A DNA stretch of 45,799 bases from Chloroflexota bacterium. GTDB taxonomy: Bacteria > Chloroflexota > Anaerolineae > DTLA01. Made by a program: the position numbers and the translations under genes. Below the pieces are notes generated by a model. That model was not told where the DNA came from. It ran no database searches and worked only from the letters and a program-made list of their open reading frames with translations. Each line of letters starts with the position of its first letter. Positions within the stretch are counted from its first letter, which is position 1. The stretch spans positions 1 through 45,799 of the forward strand of contig JACIWU010000016.1 of NCBI GenBank assembly GCA_014360805.1, written 5' to 3'. This document shows, in pieces, positions 16,333-38,677 of the stretch.

Positions 16333-16842
16333 CACCTCACTCCCGGCCTTCGGCTGCCCCCTCGCCGTGGGCAGAGATGTGGAGCAAATTGACAATTTGC
16401 TCCACGCGAGTAGGGGGTGAATCGCCGCATCGTCGCGCGGGGCCAAACCCTCGCGCTAGGGGCGTTTGGAGCGCGAAGGACGCGAAAGGGCGCGAAAGCC
16501 GCGTCCGGCTGGCGCGCGGGGCTAAACCCCCGCGCTGAAAGAACAAAGCCCCTTCGGGGCTTCGCCCGTTCAGCCCGATGCTTTAGCGTCGGGCGGGTTG
16601 CAGATGCACCTCACCCCCGGCCTTCGGCTGCCCCCTCGCCGTGGGCGGAGATGTGGAGCAAATTGCCAATCTGATCCACGCGAGTAGGGGGTGAATCGCC
16701 GCATGCCCGCGCGAGGCCAAAGAGGCCAAACCCTCGCGCTAGGGGCGAAGGTTGCGTATCGCGTAGGGGCGACCGGCCGGTCGCCCCTGCAGCCAGCCCG
16801 ATGCTTTAGCGTCGGGCGGGTTGCAGATGCACCTCAGCCCCA
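16333..16842. repeat. Repeat-filled gap with a duplicated 130-140 bp unit
   Basis: A unit at 16333-16464 recurs at 16607-16747. It begins CACCTCAC, passes through GCCTTCGGCTGCCCCCTCGCCG, and ends CCCTCGCGCTAGGGGCG. The first copy contains a perfect 27-base palindrome (16379-16405, GTGGAGCAAATTG / CAATTTGCTCCAC); in the second copy it has decayed. CCCGATGCTTTAGCGTCGGGCGGG occurs at about 16575 and 16798. No gene is visible between 16201 and 16963. Confidence 0.8.
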
Positions 16843-32511: not shown

Positions 32512-33441
32512 ATGGATGAATATCCGCCGGTGGTCGTGGTGGGCGCGGCGGCGATGGACACCAAAGGCAGGCCCGACAAGGGCTTGACGGCGGGCACGTC
32601 GTGCGAGGGCGACATCCGCATCAGCGTCGGGGGGTCGGCGCGGAACGTCGCCGAGAACCTGGCGCGGCTGGGCGTGCCCACAACCCTGCTCACGGCGGTG
32701 GGGAAGGACGGGTCGGGCCGGCGCATCCTGCACCAGGCCCAGGAAAGCGGCATCAACGTGGACCGCGTCATCGTTACGGACGAGTATCATACGGCCGCGT
32801 ACATGACCATCTACGACGAGCGGGGCGAGCCCGTGTACTCCATCCACGACATGGACATCCTGTCGCTCATCACGCCGCAGTACCTGTACTACAACCGCCG
32901 CGTCATCACCGAGTCGGCCCTGATCGCGGTGGACGCCAACCTGTCGCCGCGGGCGCTTCGGTCGCTGTTTGCGCTGGCCCGCAAGCACAAGATTCGGGTG
33001 TGCGCCGACCCGACGACGGTGGGGCTTGCGGCCCGCCTGAAGCCGTACCTGGGCGAGTTGTACATGGTAACGCCGAACGCGGCGGAAGCCGAGGCACTGA
33101 CGGGCGTGCCGGTTACCAACAAGGCCAGAGCGTTGCGCGCGGCCAAGGCCCTGGTGGGCATGGGCGTGCGCCTGGCCATCGTTACGTTGGCCGAGAAGGG
33201 GCTGTGCTACGCCACGAGCGAGGCCAGCGGGACGCTGCCCGCCGTGCCGTGCGAGATCGTGGACCTGACGGGGGCGGGCGATGCGCTGACGGCGGCGGTG
33301 ATCTTCGGCTTGCTGAACGAGATGGACGTGGACGACGCGGTGCGGTTGGGGCTAGCCGCCGCTGCCGCTACCATCGGCTGCGAGGAGACGGTCTGCCCCG
33401 ACCTGAGCGTAGATGTCTTGTATGAGAAGTTAGTTGTATGA
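32512..33441 (+). CDS. psuK: PfkB family kinase, probable pseudouridine kinase
   Basis: A 309-residue ribokinase-fold enzyme. Family motifs are GGSARNVAENLARLGVPTTLLTAVGKDGSG and the C-terminal DLTGAGDALTAAVIFGLL with the catalytic aspartate. Substrate choice comes from context: the next gene, overlapping by 4 bases, is pseudouridine-5'-phosphate glycosidase, and the pair breaks pseudouridine down via its 5'-phosphate. I start at the ATG at 32512 with GGGAGGGAG upstream; the longer open frame is repeat-derived. Confidence 0.9.
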   Translation: MDEYPPVVVVGAAAMDTKGRPDKGLTAGTSCEGDIRISVGGSARNVAENLARLGVPTTLLTAVGKDGSGRRILHQAQESGINVDRVIVTDEYHTAAYMTIYDERGEPVYSIHDMDILSLITPQYLYYNRRVITESALIAVDANLSPRALRSLFALARKHKIRVCADPTTVGLAARLKPYLGELYMVTPNAAEAEALTGVPVTNKARALRAAKALVGMGVRLAIVTLAEKGLCYATSEASGTLPAVPCEIVDLTGAGDALTAAVIFGLLNEMDVDDAVRLGLAAAAATIGCEETVCPDLSVDVLYEKLVV

Positions 33442-34334
33442 ATATTCAAATATATTCGGAAGTGCAGGCGGCGCTCCGCGCGGGCCAGCCCGTCGTGGCG
33501 CTGGAGTCCGCCGTCATCACCCACGGCCTGCCGCGCCCTCAGAACCTGGATACCGCCCGCCGCTTGGAGCGCGTGGTGCGCGAGCGCGGGGCGACGCCTG
33601 CTACCGTGGCGGTGGTGGACGGCCGCCTGTGCGTGGGTCTGGCCGACGAGGAGTTGGCGCGCCTGGCCCAAAGCCCGCGCCCGCGCAAAGTGAGCCTGCG
33701 CGATTTGGCGGCGTGCGCAGTGCAGGGCGAGGACGGCGGCACCACGGTTGCGGCGACCATGCACCTGGCGCACCAGGCCGGCATCGGCGTTTTCGCCACG
33801 GGCGGCATCGGGGGCGTTCACCGCGGGCAACCCTTTGACGTTTCGGCTGACCTGCCCATGCTAGCGCGCATGCCGATGGCCGTGGTGTGCTCGGGCGCGA
33901 AGAGCATCCTGGACCTGCCCCTGACGCTGGAGTGGCTGGAGACGCACGGCGTGCCCGTGGTGGGATACCAGACCAATCGGTTTCCGGCGTTCTACTGCCG
34001 GGACAGCGGACTTGAGGTGGACATCCGCGTGGACACGCCGGAGGCGCTGCGCGACTTCATCCGCGCTCATTGGGGCGCTGGCCTGCACACGGCGGTGCTG
34101 GTGGGGGTGCCCGTCCCCGAAGACGCCGCGCTCCCCGGCCCGCTGGTGGAGGAGGCCATTGCGCAGGCGCTGGCCGACGCGGAGCGGGACGGCATACGCG
34201 GGAAGGCCCTCACGCCGTACCTGCTGGCGCGGCTGAGCCGCATCACCGAGGGGCGGTCGCTGCGGGCGAACTTAGCGCTGCTTGAGCGCAATGCCGAGAT
34301 CGCCGCCCGACTGGCCGTGTGCATGGCGGCGTAG
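33438..34334 (+). CDS. psuG: Pseudouridine-5'-phosphate glycosidase
   Basis: Splits the C-C glycosidic bond of pseudouridine 5'-phosphate to uracil plus ribose 5-phosphate. The 298-residue protein has the family motifs VALESAVITHGLPRPQNL, SLRDLAACAVQGEDGGTTVAATMHLAHQAGIGVFATGGIGGVHRG, VCSGAKSILDLPLTLEWLETHGVPVVGYQTNRFPAFY and a conserved C-terminal half. The start ATG overlaps the psuK stop (ATGA). rpiB elsewhere in the window could use the ribose 5-phosphate released. Confidence 0.96.
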   Translation: MNIQIYSEVQAALRAGQPVVALESAVITHGLPRPQNLDTARRLERVVRERGATPATVAVVDGRLCVGLADEELARLAQSPRPRKVSLRDLAACAVQGEDGGTTVAATMHLAHQAGIGVFATGGIGGVHRGQPFDVSADLPMLARMPMAVVCSGAKSILDLPLTLEWLETHGVPVVGYQTNRFPAFYCRDSGLEVDIRVDTPEALRDFIRAHWGAGLHTAVLVGVPVPEDAALPGPLVEEAIAQALADAERDGIRGKALTPYLLARLSRITEGRSLRANLALLERNAEIAARLAVCMAA

Positions 34335-34354
34335 CGGGTTGCGCGGGCCTTCCA

Positions 34355-34370
34355 TGTTTCACGTGAAACA
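34355..34370. promoter_or_regulatory. parS centromere-like site (ParB binding)
   Basis: TGTTTCACGTGAAACA is a perfect 16-base palindrome identical to the bacterial chromosomal parS consensus; one more pair on each side extends it to 18. It lies in the 48 bases between psuG and the next gene, 12 bases before that gene's GTG. ParB loads here and spreads, and ParA/SMC act on the origin region. No parA or parB gene is in the window. Confidence 0.93.
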
Positions 34371-34382
34371 TCGGGGGACGGT

Positions 34383-35264
34383 GTGGCTGACAGAAGCGAG
34401 CCGAGAATCATAGACTACGGCGAGAGCACCTACAAGCGCGACTTCTGGGGCGAGGGCCGCGAGTACGAGGACCGGGCCGAGCGGTTCGCGCTCCGGCGCC
34501 TCATCCCGCCGCAGGGCCTGCGCATCCTGGACGTGGGCTCGGGGTTCGGCAGGCTGGTCGCGCTCTACCGCCATTTCTCCGAGGTGGTCCTGCTGGACTA
34601 CTCGGACGACCAACTGCGCGACGCCCGCCGCACATGGGGGGACGACCGCATCCAGTATGTGGCGGCCAACTGGTACCACATGCCCTTCGCCGACGCGACC
34701 TTTGACGCCGTGTTGAGTGTGCGCGTGCTCCACCATGCGGCGGACTTGCCCGCGCTCATGGGCGAGATCGCCCGCGTCCTGGCCCCTGGCGGCATCTACG
34801 TCCTGGAGTTCGCGAACAAGCGGAACCTCAAGGCCATCGCCCGCTTCCTGCTGCGCCGCCAGAAGTGGAACCCCTTTGACCCGGAGCCGGTGGAGTACCA
34901 CCCGCTGCATTGGGATTTCCATCCCCGCTGGATGTACGACCTGCTCGTGGACAAAGGCTTCACGGTGGAGCGGCGGCTGACCGTGTCCCACTTCCGCGCG
35001 GGGCTGCTCAAGCGCCTGGTGCCCGCGGGCATCCTGGCGCGCGCCGACGCCGCGCTCCAGTGGACCGGGCGGTACTTCCAGTTGACCCCCAGCGTGTTCA
35101 TGCGGGCGCGCGCGGCGGGCCTGCCCACGCCCCCGACGGAGCGCCTGGTGTACCGCTGCCCGGCGTGCGGCGGCGCGCTGACAGAGGACGCGATGGGGCT
35201 GCGCTGCGCGGCTTGCGGCGCGCTGTACCCGCTGCACGACGGGATTTGGATGTTCAAGGCGTAG
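34383..35264 (+). CDS. SAM-dependent methyltransferase with C-terminal zinc ribbon
   Basis: A 293-residue protein with a class I methyltransferase domain (motif I LDVGSGFGRLVALY, about 49-62; acidic strand 2 end VVLLDYSDDQL; post-motif FDAVLSVRVLHHAADL). It ends with a Trm112-like zinc ribbon, CPACGG...LRCAACGALYPLHDGIWMF. The substrate is unknown. The GTG start at 34383 has GGGGGACG upstream, and the parS site lies just before it, so ParB binding might affect its expression. Confidence 0.85.
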   Translation: MADRSEPRIIDYGESTYKRDFWGEGREYEDRAERFALRRLIPPQGLRILDVGSGFGRLVALYRHFSEVVLLDYSDDQLRDARRTWGDDRIQYVAANWYHMPFADATFDAVLSVRVLHHAADLPALMGEIARVLAPGGIYVLEFANKRNLKAIARFLLRRQKWNPFDPEPVEYHPLHWDFHPRWMYDLLVDKGFTVERRLTVSHFRAGLLKRLVPAGILARADAALQWTGRYFQLTPSVFMRARAAGLPTPPTERLVYRCPACGGALTEDAMGLRCAACGALYPLHDGIWMFKA

Positions 35265-35274
35265 GATGCGCCCC

Positions 35275-35640
35275 CATACGCGAACCGGAATCCACGAATC
35301 ACACGAATCCGCACGAATGAGATAACCGGAATCCGCGAATAACACGAATCTACACGAATGGGGGAACATACTGCGTCGCATCTTGGTCGCCGGACACGTA
35401 GGGCGGCTTTCCATAGCCGCCGGAGCCTGCTAACCGCGAATCGCGCGAATCCACGCGAATGGGTAACCGGAATCCGCGAATAACACGAATCTACACGAAT
35501 GGGTAGCATACCCGACGCCGAAGACGGGGGTTTAGCCCCGCGCGGGCATACCGACCTCACCCCCCTCATTCCCTCTCTCCACGGGCGGAGGCCGAAGGCT
35601 GGGGGTGAGGTGCGCCGGCGCGAACCCCGCCCGACGCTGA
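35275..35640. repeat. Repeat-filled gap (CACGAAT tandem blocks and others)
   Basis: CGAATCCACGAATCACACGAATCC-type blocks occur at about 35285-35317, 35330-35360 and 35430-35500. Half of a two-hairpin element lies at 35397-35430, and a CTCACCCC...GGGGGTGAGG inverted element at about 35556-35611. No gene is seen in 35265-35837. Confidence 0.8.
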
Positions 35641-35817: not shown

Positions 35818-35837
35818 CAGCGCAAGTTGAATATCCA

Positions 35838-35983
35838 GGAGCCTTCGGGGCAGGGTGCGGCCTGCGAGTCAGGCCAATTCCCGATCGGCGGTAAGGCCTC
35901 GCTGAGGAGGCCAAGCCCGCGAGCGCAAGCAGATCCGGTGCAAAGCCGGGGCCGACGGTACAGTCCGGAAGGGAGAAGGTTCC
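35838..35983 (+). ncRNA. FMN riboswitch (RFN element)
   Basis: Conserved RFN blocks are all present in order: CTTCGGGGCAGGGTG, AATTCCCGATCGGCGGTAA, AGCCCGCGAGC, ATCCGGTGCAAAGCCGGGGCCGACGGTACAGTCCGGAAGGGAGAAGG. P1 closes between GGAGCCTTC (35838-35846) and GAAGGTTCC (35975-35983), 9 pairs with one G-T. It binds flavin mononucleotide and usually turns expression off. Two variable stems are extended (about 35856-35875 and 35896-35913). Confidence 0.95.
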
Positions 35984-36048
35984 GCAATGGGCAGTGCGCA
36001 TGCCTGGAATTTCCATGCGCCCTGTCGGTTGAATTCCTGCCCCGCTGG

Positions 36049-36071: not shown

Positions 36072-36872
36072 ATGGCCGGAATCTGCCAACCTCAAACCAA
36101 GCCGGACCTGGCGAAGCGGCTGCGGCAGGCGGCAGGCCGCGCGGCGGGTGCGATCCTAGGTGTGCTGGGCTTCCTCGCAGTGTGGGGCGGCCTGGTCGCG
36201 CTGCTGAAGTATCCGCCGTTTATCCTCCCTGGGCCTGGGCGCGTCTGGTCGCGCTTCCTCGTCGCGGTCGCCGATGGCTCGCTGTGGTACCACACATCGC
36301 TCACGCTGTTTGAAATCTTCGCGGGCCTCCTGCTGGGCGTGAGCGTTGCCACCCTGCTGGGATACATCATCGCCAAGTCGCCCACGCTGGACCGCCTGCT
36401 GTCGCCCTACATCGTCGCGGCCCAGGCAGTTCCCATCGTTGCCCTGGCGCCGTTGCTGGTCATCTGGTTCGGCTTCGGGAGCGTCTCCAAGATTCTGGTC
36501 TGCGCGCTGACGCTGTTCTTGCCCGTGCTCATCAATACTGCCGTCGGCATCCGCTCGGTGGATCGCAACCTGCGCGAACTGATGCGGTCGCTGGGCGCGT
36601 CGCGATGGCAGACGTTTCGGATGCTGGAAGTGCCCGCCGCGCTGCCCGTGCTGTTCGGGGGGCTGAAAATCGGCGCGACGCTGTCGGTCATCGGCGCGGT
36701 CGTGGGCGAATTCGTCGGCGCCGACAGGGGACTGGGGTTTCTGATCAACCTGGCGCGGGGGCTGTTTGACACGCCCCTGCTCTTCGTCGCGCTGTTCACC
36801 CTTGTGGCGATCGCGCTGTCGCTCTACGGCGCGATCTCGCTCGTTGAGGCCGCTCTGCTGCGGCATCGGTAA
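36072..36872 (+). CDS. ribX: ABC transporter permease, riboflavin-type (RibX-like)
   Basis: A 266-residue inner-membrane permease of the BPD type with about six helices and the EAA loop RELMRSLGASRWQTFRMLEVPAALP that docks on the ATPase. It is related to SsuC/TauC/ThiX permeases. The FMN riboswitch immediately upstream points to flavin or a flavin precursor as substrate, matching the predicted RibXY transporters of Chloroflexi. The ATG is unusually close to the terminator T-run. Confidence 0.85.
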   Translation: MAGICQPQTKPDLAKRLRQAAGRAAGAILGVLGFLAVWGGLVALLKYPPFILPGPGRVWSRFLVAVADGSLWYHTSLTLFEIFAGLLLGVSVATLLGYIIAKSPTLDRLLSPYIVAAQAVPIVALAPLLVIWFGFGSVSKILVCALTLFLPVLINTAVGIRSVDRNLRELMRSLGASRWQTFRMLEVPAALPVLFGGLKIGATLSVIGAVVGEFVGADRGLGFLINLARGLFDTPLLFVALFTLVAIALSLYGAISLVEAALLRHR

Positions 36873-36896
36873 CATATTACAGTCCAGGAGGACGCC

Positions 36897-37883
36897 ATGA
36901 AGACATTGCGGTTGGCTTTGATTCTGCTGGCGCTCGTCGCGTCGGTCGCTGCGGTCGGGTGCAAGCCCACTCCCCGCCCCACCCAGGAAGTTACGCTGGC
37001 GATGGGCTATATCCCCAACGTGCAGTTCGCGCCCTTGTACGTGGCGGTGAAGAAAGGCTACTTCGCCGAGGAAGGCATCCAGGTGAAGTTTGACTACGGC
37101 TGGGAGACCGACCTGCTGAAACTGGTGGGCACGGGCGAGTTGAAGTTCGCCGTCGCCAGCGGGGATCAGGTCATCCTGGCCCGCTCGCAGGGGCTGCCCG
37201 TCGTGTACGTGATGAACTGGTACCGCCGCTATCCGGTCTCGGTTACCGCCCTGGCGGACAGGGGCATCCGCACGCCGCAGGATTTGGTCGGCAAGACCGT
37301 GGGCATTCCCGCGACCTACGGGGCCAGTTACATCGGGTGGCGGGCGCTGCTGTACGCCACCGGCATCAGTCCCGATTCGGTTACGCTTCAGACCATCGGC
37401 TACGCGCAAGTCCCCGCGCTGGTAGAAAAGCAGGTGGACGCCGCCGTCTGCTACGTGATGAACGAGCCGGTTCAACTGGCGCAGGCGGGGTATGCCGTCG
37501 TGGATATGCCCGTGAGCGACTACATAGACCTGGTGTCCAACGGCTTCATCACCAACGAGCAGACGATCCAGAAGGAGCCGGCGCTGGTGCAGGGTATGGT
37601 GAGGGCGGCGCTGCGGGGCCTGCGGTACACGCTGGATCACCCCGACGAGGCGTTTGAGATTTCGCTGGAGTTCATCCCCGAGATGAAGAGCACCGATGTC
37701 CCGCTCCAGAAGGCCGTCTTGTACAAGAGCCTGGAAGTTTGGAGAAGCGATCGCCTCGGCGAGAGCAGTCAGGCGGCGTGGCAGGCCTCGGTGGACTTCA
37801 TGAAGTCCGTGGGGTTGATTCAGGAGGCCCCTGCGATCAACACGCTGTTCACGAATCGGTTTGTGGAGGGCGCGAGGAAATAG
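36897..37883 (+). CDS. ribY: ABC transporter substrate-binding lipoprotein (RibY-like)
   Basis: A 328-residue NMT1/THI5-type binding protein. The signal peptide ends in the lipobox-like VAAVGC, so Cys22 would be lipid-anchored after cleavage. The mature protein has VTLAMGYIPNVQFAPLYVAVKKGYFAEEGIQVKFDYG, typical of the family. GGAGGACGCC precedes the ATG at 36897, 24 bases after ribX. Substrate is inferred from the FMN riboswitch. Confidence 0.88.
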   Translation: MKTLRLALILLALVASVAAVGCKPTPRPTQEVTLAMGYIPNVQFAPLYVAVKKGYFAEEGIQVKFDYGWETDLLKLVGTGELKFAVASGDQVILARSQGLPVVYVMNWYRRYPVSVTALADRGIRTPQDLVGKTVGIPATYGASYIGWRALLYATGISPDSVTLQTIGYAQVPALVEKQVDAAVCYVMNEPVQLAQAGYAVVDMPVSDYIDLVSNGFITNEQTIQKEPALVQGMVRAALRGLRYTLDHPDEAFEISLEFIPEMKSTDVPLQKAVLYKSLEVWRSDRLGESSQAAWQASVDFMKSVGLIQEAPAINTLFTNRFVEGARK

Positions 37884-37885
37884 CG

Positions 37886-38677
37886 ATGGCTGGCAGTCCG
37901 CCAGATTCCGAGAATACCACCGCGCCCCCTGCGCTGGAGGCGATTGACCTGACCAAGACCTACTGCACGTCCCAGGGCGAGGTGGCGGCCGTGGCGGGGG
38001 TAACGATGCAGGCCGCCCAGGGCGAGTTCGTGTGCATCGTGGGGCCTTCGGGGTGCGGCAAGACCACGCTCCTGCACCTGTTCGCGGGGCTGCTGGAGCC
38101 GACATCGGGCCTCGTGCGCGCCAACGGCATCCAGATCAAGGGGCCCGTGCGTGAGATCGGGCTAGTGTTCCAGAACGGGAACCTGATGCCCTGGCGCAGC
38201 GTGTTGCGCAACGTTACCCTGCCGCTGGAGATCCAGGGCGTGCCCCTTCGGGAGGCCGAGGAGGCGGCGCGTAGCGTGCTGGATTTGGTGGGCCTGAGGG
38301 GGTTTGAGCACGCGCGACCGCGGGAACTTTCGGGCGGGATGCAGCAGCGGGTCGCCATTGCCCGCGCCCTGGTGTACGACCCGAAGATCTTGCTACTGGA
38401 TGAGCCTTTCGGCGCGCTGGACGCCCTGACCCGCGAGCGGATGAACCTGGAATTGCAGCGTATCTGGCAGGCGCGGCAGAAGACCGTCATCATGGTAACC
38501 CACAACATTCACGAGGCGGTGTTCCTGGGAGACCGCGTGCTGGTGATGACCCCGCGGCCAGGGCAGATTTCCTCCGAGACGCGCATTCCCCTGCCGCGCC
38601 CGCGCGACCTGGCGGTGATGGCCTCGCCGCAATTCGGCCTGCTGGCCCAGTCCATCCGCGAATCTATCTATGAGTGA
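37886..38677 (+). CDS. ribZ: ABC transporter ATP-binding protein (RibZ-like)
   Basis: A 263-residue ATPase that powers the RibXY permease. Walker A is GPSGCGKTT, the Q-loop is FQNGNLMPW, the signature is LSGGMQQRVAIARA, Walker B is ILLLDEPFGALD and the switch histidine is in VTHNIHEA. The start at 37886 lies 2 bases after the ribY stop; the longer open frame is an overlap with ribY. The C-terminus ends 17 bases from the convergent transglutaminase gene. Confidence 0.9.
   Translation: MAGSPPDSENTTAPPALEAIDLTKTYCTSQGEVAAVAGVTMQAAQGEFVCIVGPSGCGKTTLLHLFAGLLEPTSGLVRANGIQIKGPVREIGLVFQNGNLMPWRSVLRNVTLPLEIQGVPLREAEEAARSVLDLVGLRGFEHARPRELSGGMQQRVAIARALVYDPKILLLDEPFGALDALTRERMNLELQRIWQARQKTVIMVTHNIHEAVFLGDRVLVMTPRPGQISSETRIPLPRPRDLAVMASPQFGLLAQSIRESIYE

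What the first reader, a model, noticed from the sequence alone, without database searches (positions are those of the whole stretch)
34355..34370. Perfect chromosomal parS site between psuG and a methyltransferase gene
The 16-base palindrome TGTTTCACGTGAAACA equals the well-known ParB loading site. Such sites cluster near the replication origin, and mnmG, often origin-proximal, is 7 kb away. The nearby genes are not parAB, so this would be an outlying parS, and it lies 12 bases before a start codon where ParB could affect expression.
Basis: partly seen in the sequence, partly recalled or inferred. Interest (0 to 1): 0.75.

Follow-up and report, generated by a model that had tools for sequence, protein, structure and literature searches.

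The report
Lone parS site beside methyltransferase gene
This is a genuine chromosome-partitioning (parS) site, the only one found in this Chloroflexota genome, and across many related bacteria the same site stays attached to the start of the same uncharacterised methyltransferase gene even when the genes for the proteins that act on it have moved away.

Summary
The 16-mer TGTTTCACGTGAAACA is at 34355-34370, inside an 18-bp perfect palindrome, 12 bases before the methyltransferase (MTase) start codon. The expected number of exact copies is about 1e-4 per genome. It is the only match (<=2 mismatches) in the 3.24-Mb draft genome, so it is not an outlier of a cluster. The genome has one parAB pair on another contig, and its ParB carries the parS-reading residues R173/G201. 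In 60 genomes of the class (Anaerolineae), 32 have parS within ~260 bp of, or inside, the ortholog of the same MTase. In 80 loci chosen by MTase alone, 33 have parS within 1 kb upstream or inside; a reversed control pattern gave 0. parB lies within 10 kb of parS in only 3 of the 60. Some lineages keep parA-parB-parS-MTase; others parS-MTase-dnaN-recF-rsmG. So the window most likely holds the parS-MTase half of a split origin/par locus. mnmG 7 kb away is not part of it. In two relatives parS lies ~20 kb from the skew-defined origin, but this genome's origin cannot be placed. Control of the MTase by ParB is untested. Side finding: variant parS sites co-vary with ParB residues 173 and 201.

The parts
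34355..34370 (.). parS site TGTTTCACGTGAAACA, the only one found in the genome (<=2 mismatches)
   Evidence: conserved at this place in relatives
34354..34371 (.). full 18-bp perfect palindrome around parS
34383..35264 (+). SAM-dependent methyltransferase (PF08241) with a C-terminal four-cysteine zinc-ribbon (weak Trm112p match); gene to which parS is evolutionarily linked
33438..34334 (+). psuG-like pseudouridine-5'-phosphate glycosidase (PF04227); left neighbour of parS in the three genomes of this genus, not conserved at class level

Best explanation
The site is the chromosome's ParB-loading site (parS), the only one found in this genome. ParB (encoded on another contig) should bind the palindrome through its helix-turn-helix, close into a CTP-bound clamp, slide onto flanking DNA and serve ParA-driven segregation of the origin region; this is inferred from the known family. 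The site's position is inherited: in ancestral Chloroflexota the origin locus probably read parA-parB-parS-MTase-dnaN-recF-rsmG, and rearrangement separated parAB and dnaN while parS stayed attached to the 5' end of the MTase gene. Shown here: the site, its uniqueness, the ParB with matching specificity residues, and the conserved linkage to the MTase. Inferred: ParB binding, clamp sliding, segregation role, origin proximity in this genome, and the ancestral order.
For: Exact palindrome with negligible chance expectation. One chromosomal-type ParB with ParA upstream, residues R173/T179/R184/G201; R173 and G201 are the parS-reading residues of ParB (PMC7383237). parS within ~260 bp of or inside the same MTase in 32 of 60 class genomes spanning dozens of families. 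In 80 loci picked by MTase alone, 33 have parS within 1 kb upstream or inside, against 0 reversed-control hits in 1.14 Mb. Outside the class, 2 of 3 MTase-bearing genomes also have parS at the MTase start (G079, G075). Possible ancestral order: parA-parB-parS-MTase in G042; parB-MTase-parS in G038; parB-variant sites-MTase in G012 and G047; parS-MTase-dnaN-recF-rsmG in L244, L251, L252, L271. In closed genome G011 the cumulative GC-skew minimum is ~2.736 Mb and parS is at 2.716 Mb, while dnaA, parAB and MTase lie elsewhere; in G053 the minimum is ~70 kb, dnaA 64.7 kb, parS 89 kb. Variant sites co-vary with ParB residues 173 and 201.
Against: No binding or segregation data. This genome is a 154-contig draft, so further parS sites could be missing in gaps, although parAB itself is assembled. 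In +-9 kb around parS there is no consistent leading-strand switch (26 loci, mean difference -0.019, p = 0.12). GC skew was uninformative in G031 and broad in G028. In 47 of the 80 loci no near-canonical parS lies within 1 kb of the MTase.
Confidence: 0.85

Rival explanations
1. The parS is also kept as a regulatory element of the MTase gene (or of a membrane-protein/MTase operon): ParB loaded 5-90 bp upstream of the start codon obstructs or tunes transcription, tying MTase expression to origin segregation or gene dosage.
For: parS usually lies 5-90 bp upstream of the MTase start. In a subgroup it lies ~770-970 bp upstream, before a one-TM protein gene that directly precedes the MTase on the same strand; G010 shows parS ~110 bp before that gene although no MTase was found in it. 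parS left parAB far more often than it left the MTase. ParB at a single parS modestly lowers comCDE expression in S. pneumoniae (PMC7022226).
Against: The probable ancestral order parB-parS-MTase already puts parS upstream; with only tens of bases between them, linkage alone can keep the pair together. In family f13 parS is inside the coding sequence, in G038 and G015 downstream, so the upstream place is not obligatory. No expression data.
Confidence: 0.25
2. The palindrome is an operator for a dedicated transcription factor controlling the MTase, unrelated to ParB.
For: Perfect palindrome, present once in the genome, directly upstream of a gene.
Against: Identical to parS; changes at base 1 and base 6 of the half-site in relatives go with changes in ParB residues 173 and 201; sites occur inside or beyond the gene in some genomes; the few parS sites of genomes such as G011 and G028 are far from the MTase.
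Confidence: 0.04
3. The palindrome acts as an RNA hairpin (terminator, attenuator or translation control) between psuG and the MTase.
For: The transcript could form a 7-bp stem just upstream of the MTase ribosome-binding site.
Against: No terminator-like site found. The letters rather than only the complementarity are conserved across dozens of families, with distance to the gene varying from a few to ~950 bp.
Confidence: 0.02
4. Chance occurrence of a 16-mer.
For: Only one site in the genome.
Against: Expected 9.6e-5 per genome, and the same position is conserved in both other genomes of the genus and in dozens of families.
Confidence: 0.001

Closest known systems
Canonical chromosomal ParABS system (ParA, ParB/Spo0J, parS; TIGR00180 ParB)
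   Same: Exact consensus parS; one ParB with GERR and ENIQR motifs and R173/G201 specificity residues; ParA directly upstream of ParB.
   Different: Only one parS, on a different contig from parAB (115 kb apart in sister genome G002), linked instead to a methyltransferase gene.
Single-parS chromosomes such as Xanthomonas campestris (PMC7333895)
   Same: One parS in the genome; a single parS is often enough for segregation.
   Different: Here the single site shows a conserved gene neighbour that is not parAB.
S. pneumoniae parS near comCDE, where ParB modestly represses a nearby operon (PMC7022226)
   Same: parS close to a non-par gene; ParB could influence it.
   Different: Here the linkage is much closer (12 bp) and shared by dozens of families; no expression data.
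Noc and its NBS site (PMC7383237)
   Same: Variant sites in relatives (TGTTTCCCGGGAAACA; TATTTCACGTGAAATA) and ParB changes at 201 (A or R) and 173 (Q) mirror the parS-to-NBS differences.
   Different: They occur in the best chromosomal-type ParB of each genome, not in a recognised Noc; the window genome itself has the canonical pair.

Membership tests
chromosomal parS site | 16-bp consensus TGTTTCACGTGAAACA | tested here: met
   0 mismatches at 34355-34370
chromosomal parS site | genome encodes ParB (and ParA) | tested here: met
   G000:C18, TIGR00180 E 3.8e-55; ParA upstream
chromosomal parS site | ParB carries parS-type specificity residues (R173, G201) | tested here: met
chromosomal parS site | conserved in related genomes at an equivalent place | tested here: met
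chromosomal parS site | near the replication origin | tested here: inconclusive
   ~20 kb from the skew minimum in G011 and G053; next to dnaN/recF/rsmG in some relatives; no local switch at parS in 26 loci; own contig not placeable
chromosomal parS site | bound by ParB in vivo or in vitro | not testable with these tools
   needs ChIP-seq, EMSA or bio-layer interferometry
origin-region par locus (mnmG-rsmG-parA-parB type) | parAB and rsmG adjacent to mnmG and parS | tested here: not met
   no parAB, rsmG, dnaN or recF in the window; mnmG absent near this MTase in 80 related loci
NBS (Noc-binding site) | NBS letters (A at base 1, C at base 6 of the half-site) | tested here: not met
   window site has G at base 1 and A at base 6 of each half-site, the parS letters

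The most novel reading that the evidence does not exclude
In Chloroflexota the chromosomal centromere doubles as the 5' control element of an uncharacterised zinc-ribbon methyltransferase operon, so ParB loading couples origin segregation to MTase expression, and the pairing has been maintained for that reason since before the classes of the phylum split.
Probability: 0.2. Interest if true: 0.7.

Novelty: new member of a known kind. Interest (0 to 1): 0.45.

Why it matters
No paper was found in the searched library that describes parS sites in Anaerolineae or their tie to this methyltransferase. If the linkage holds, this MTase gene becomes a landmark for finding the centromere of uncultured Chloroflexota in fragmented genomes, and it raises a testable question: is a gene that stays next to the chromosome's only ParB-loading site regulated by it? 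The variant sites that co-vary with ParB residues 173 and 201 look like natural counterparts of a parS-to-NBS specificity path studied by mutagenesis (PMC7383237).

Tried and rejected
A strand-switch test at parS in +-9 kb of 26 loci found no signal. GC skew in G031 was not significant and in G028 too broad to place the origin precisely. mnmG as an origin marker was rejected. RNA-hairpin and terminator readings were rejected. Livny et al. 2007 on parS distribution is not held. The f11 variant site TGTTTCACGTTTTACA is not explained by ParB residues 173/201.

Full report
OBSERVATION. The 16-mer TGTTTCACGTGAAACA is at 34355-34370 and is the only match in the window at up to 3 mismatches. It sits inside an 18-bp perfect palindrome, 34354-34371. 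At 65% GC an exact copy is expected 9.6e-5 times in the whole 3.24-Mb genome. It is the only site in the genome at up to 2 mismatches. It lies between a psuG-like gene (33438-34334, PF04227) and a SAM methyltransferase gene (MTase, 34383-35264, PF08241), 12 bases before the MTase start.

PROTEIN PARTNERS. The genome has one ParB (TIGR00180, E 3.8e-55) on contig C18 with ParA directly upstream. ParB has the GERR and ENIQR motifs and, in Caulobacter numbering (assigned from the helix-turn-helix motif, not from a full alignment), R173/T179/R184/G201. R173 and G201 are the residues reported as conserved in ParB and replaced by Q and R in Noc (PMC7383237). So site and protein match.

LINKAGE. The window genome belongs to the Chloroflexota, class Anaerolineae, judged by the titles of closely related records. 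In 60 class genomes, comparing parS positions with orthologs of the downstream MTase and reading 40 neighbourhoods, 32 genomes have a parS (0-2 mismatches) within about 260 bp of the MTase or inside it, mostly 5-90 bp upstream of its start. ParB lies within 10 kb of such a parS in only three (G018, G038, G042). In a second set of 80 named loci, chosen by the MTase alone and partly overlapping the first set, 24 have a near-perfect core within 250 bp upstream, 2 more only inside the gene and 7 more at 770-950 bp upstream, in total 33; the reversed pattern gave no hit in 1.14 Mb. In six of the seven that were read, the gap holds a conserved one-TM protein gene on the same strand; this protein was found before the MTase in 21 of the 80 loci. 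Beyond the class, the MTase was found in three sampled genomes of other groups in the phylum, and in two of them (G079, G075) parS is at its start.

ORIGIN OF THE ARRANGEMENT. G042 has parA-parB-parS-MTase; G038 parA-parB-MTase-parS; G012 and G047 parA-parB-[two TGTTTCACGTTTTACA]-MTase; G034 parA-parB-MTase with parS 40 kb away. Others show parS-MTase-dnaN-recF-rsmG (L244, L251, L252, L271). The simplest reading is an ancestral origin cluster parA-parB-parS-MTase-dnaN-recF-rsmG that has been broken up while parS stayed with the MTase. No formal gene-order reconstruction was made. In the sister genome G002, parS and parB are 115 kb apart on one contig.

POSITION ON THE CHROMOSOME. In closed genome G011 the GC-skew fit is strong (R2 0.67, 0 of 300 permutations) and the cumulative minimum lies at about 2.736 Mb; parS is at 2.716 Mb, whereas dnaA (1.84 Mb), MTase (1.85 Mb) and parB (1.52 Mb) are elsewhere. 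On the G053 contig the minimum is at about 70 kb, dnaA at 64.7 kb and parS at 89 kb. G028 is compatible but broad, and G031 gives no signal. There is no consistent strand switch within 9 kb either side of parS in 26 loci, so parS is not exactly at the switch point. The window's own skew is flat and the origin of this genome cannot be placed.

SITE-PROTEIN CO-VARIATION. Of 44 ParB helix-turn-helix regions read, all have R173 except G042 (Q173), whose site is TATTTCACGTGAAATA, with base 1 changed. Nearly all have G201; the four that belong to genomes with base 6 changed (G036 and G060 TGTTTCCCGGGAAACA; G061 and G063 hybrid sites) have A201, R201, A201 and A201. G022 is irregular there. Base 1 with residue 173 and base 6 with residue 201 are the pairs established by mutagenesis and crystal structures (PMC7383237). 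The four belong to one family, f35 (matching ParB coordinates), so this is only one or two evolutionary events, plus G042.

MECHANISM AND VERDICT. Most likely this is the working centromere site of the chromosome, loaded by ParB as in other bacteria, lying where it does because it is inherited with the MTase. Whether ParB also regulates the MTase is open. The MTase has a C-terminal four-cysteine ribbon with a weak Trm112p match (7 of 12 members, best E 0.002), matches no NCBIfam equivalog above cut-off, and its substrate is unknown.

Noticed in passing
G036, G042, L234, L254, L280 and family f35: Variant parS sites with NBS-like letters, including hybrids such as TGTTTCACGGGAAACA, in genomes whose ParB has A/R at position 201 or Q at 173: natural counterparts of the parS-to-NBS specificity switch.
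   Followed up: partly
G012, G047 (L092, L094) and L220: Asymmetric variant TGTTTCACGTTTTACA, twice between parB and the MTase in G012 and G047 and once before the MTase in L220; not explained by ParB residues 173/201.
   Followed up: no
L205, L223, L244 (MTase +565 to +586): In some lineages the parS lies inside the MTase coding sequence at nearly the same position; L244 has a matching variant both inside and upstream.
   Followed up: partly
L222, L227, L234, L237, L243, L280 and others, directly upstream of the MTase: Uncharacterised one-TM protein of ~205-250 aa on the MTase strand; no significant Pfam match.
   Followed up: partly
window 35837-35984 (+), genes 36072-38677: FMN riboswitch (RF00050) upstream of an ABC transporter with an NMT1-like binding protein: probably a riboflavin or flavin-precursor importer.
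   Followed up: no
window 16765-16788: 24-bp perfect palindrome AGGGGCGACCGGCCGGTCGCCCCT, not examined.
   Followed up: no
window 35285-35515: Repeated intergenic unit of the type 'ccggaatccgcgaataacacgaatctacacgaat', seen several times by eye.
   Followed up: no
G132: 15 parS sites (<=1 mismatch) over many contigs, in contrast to one or two in most Chloroflexota.
   Followed up: no
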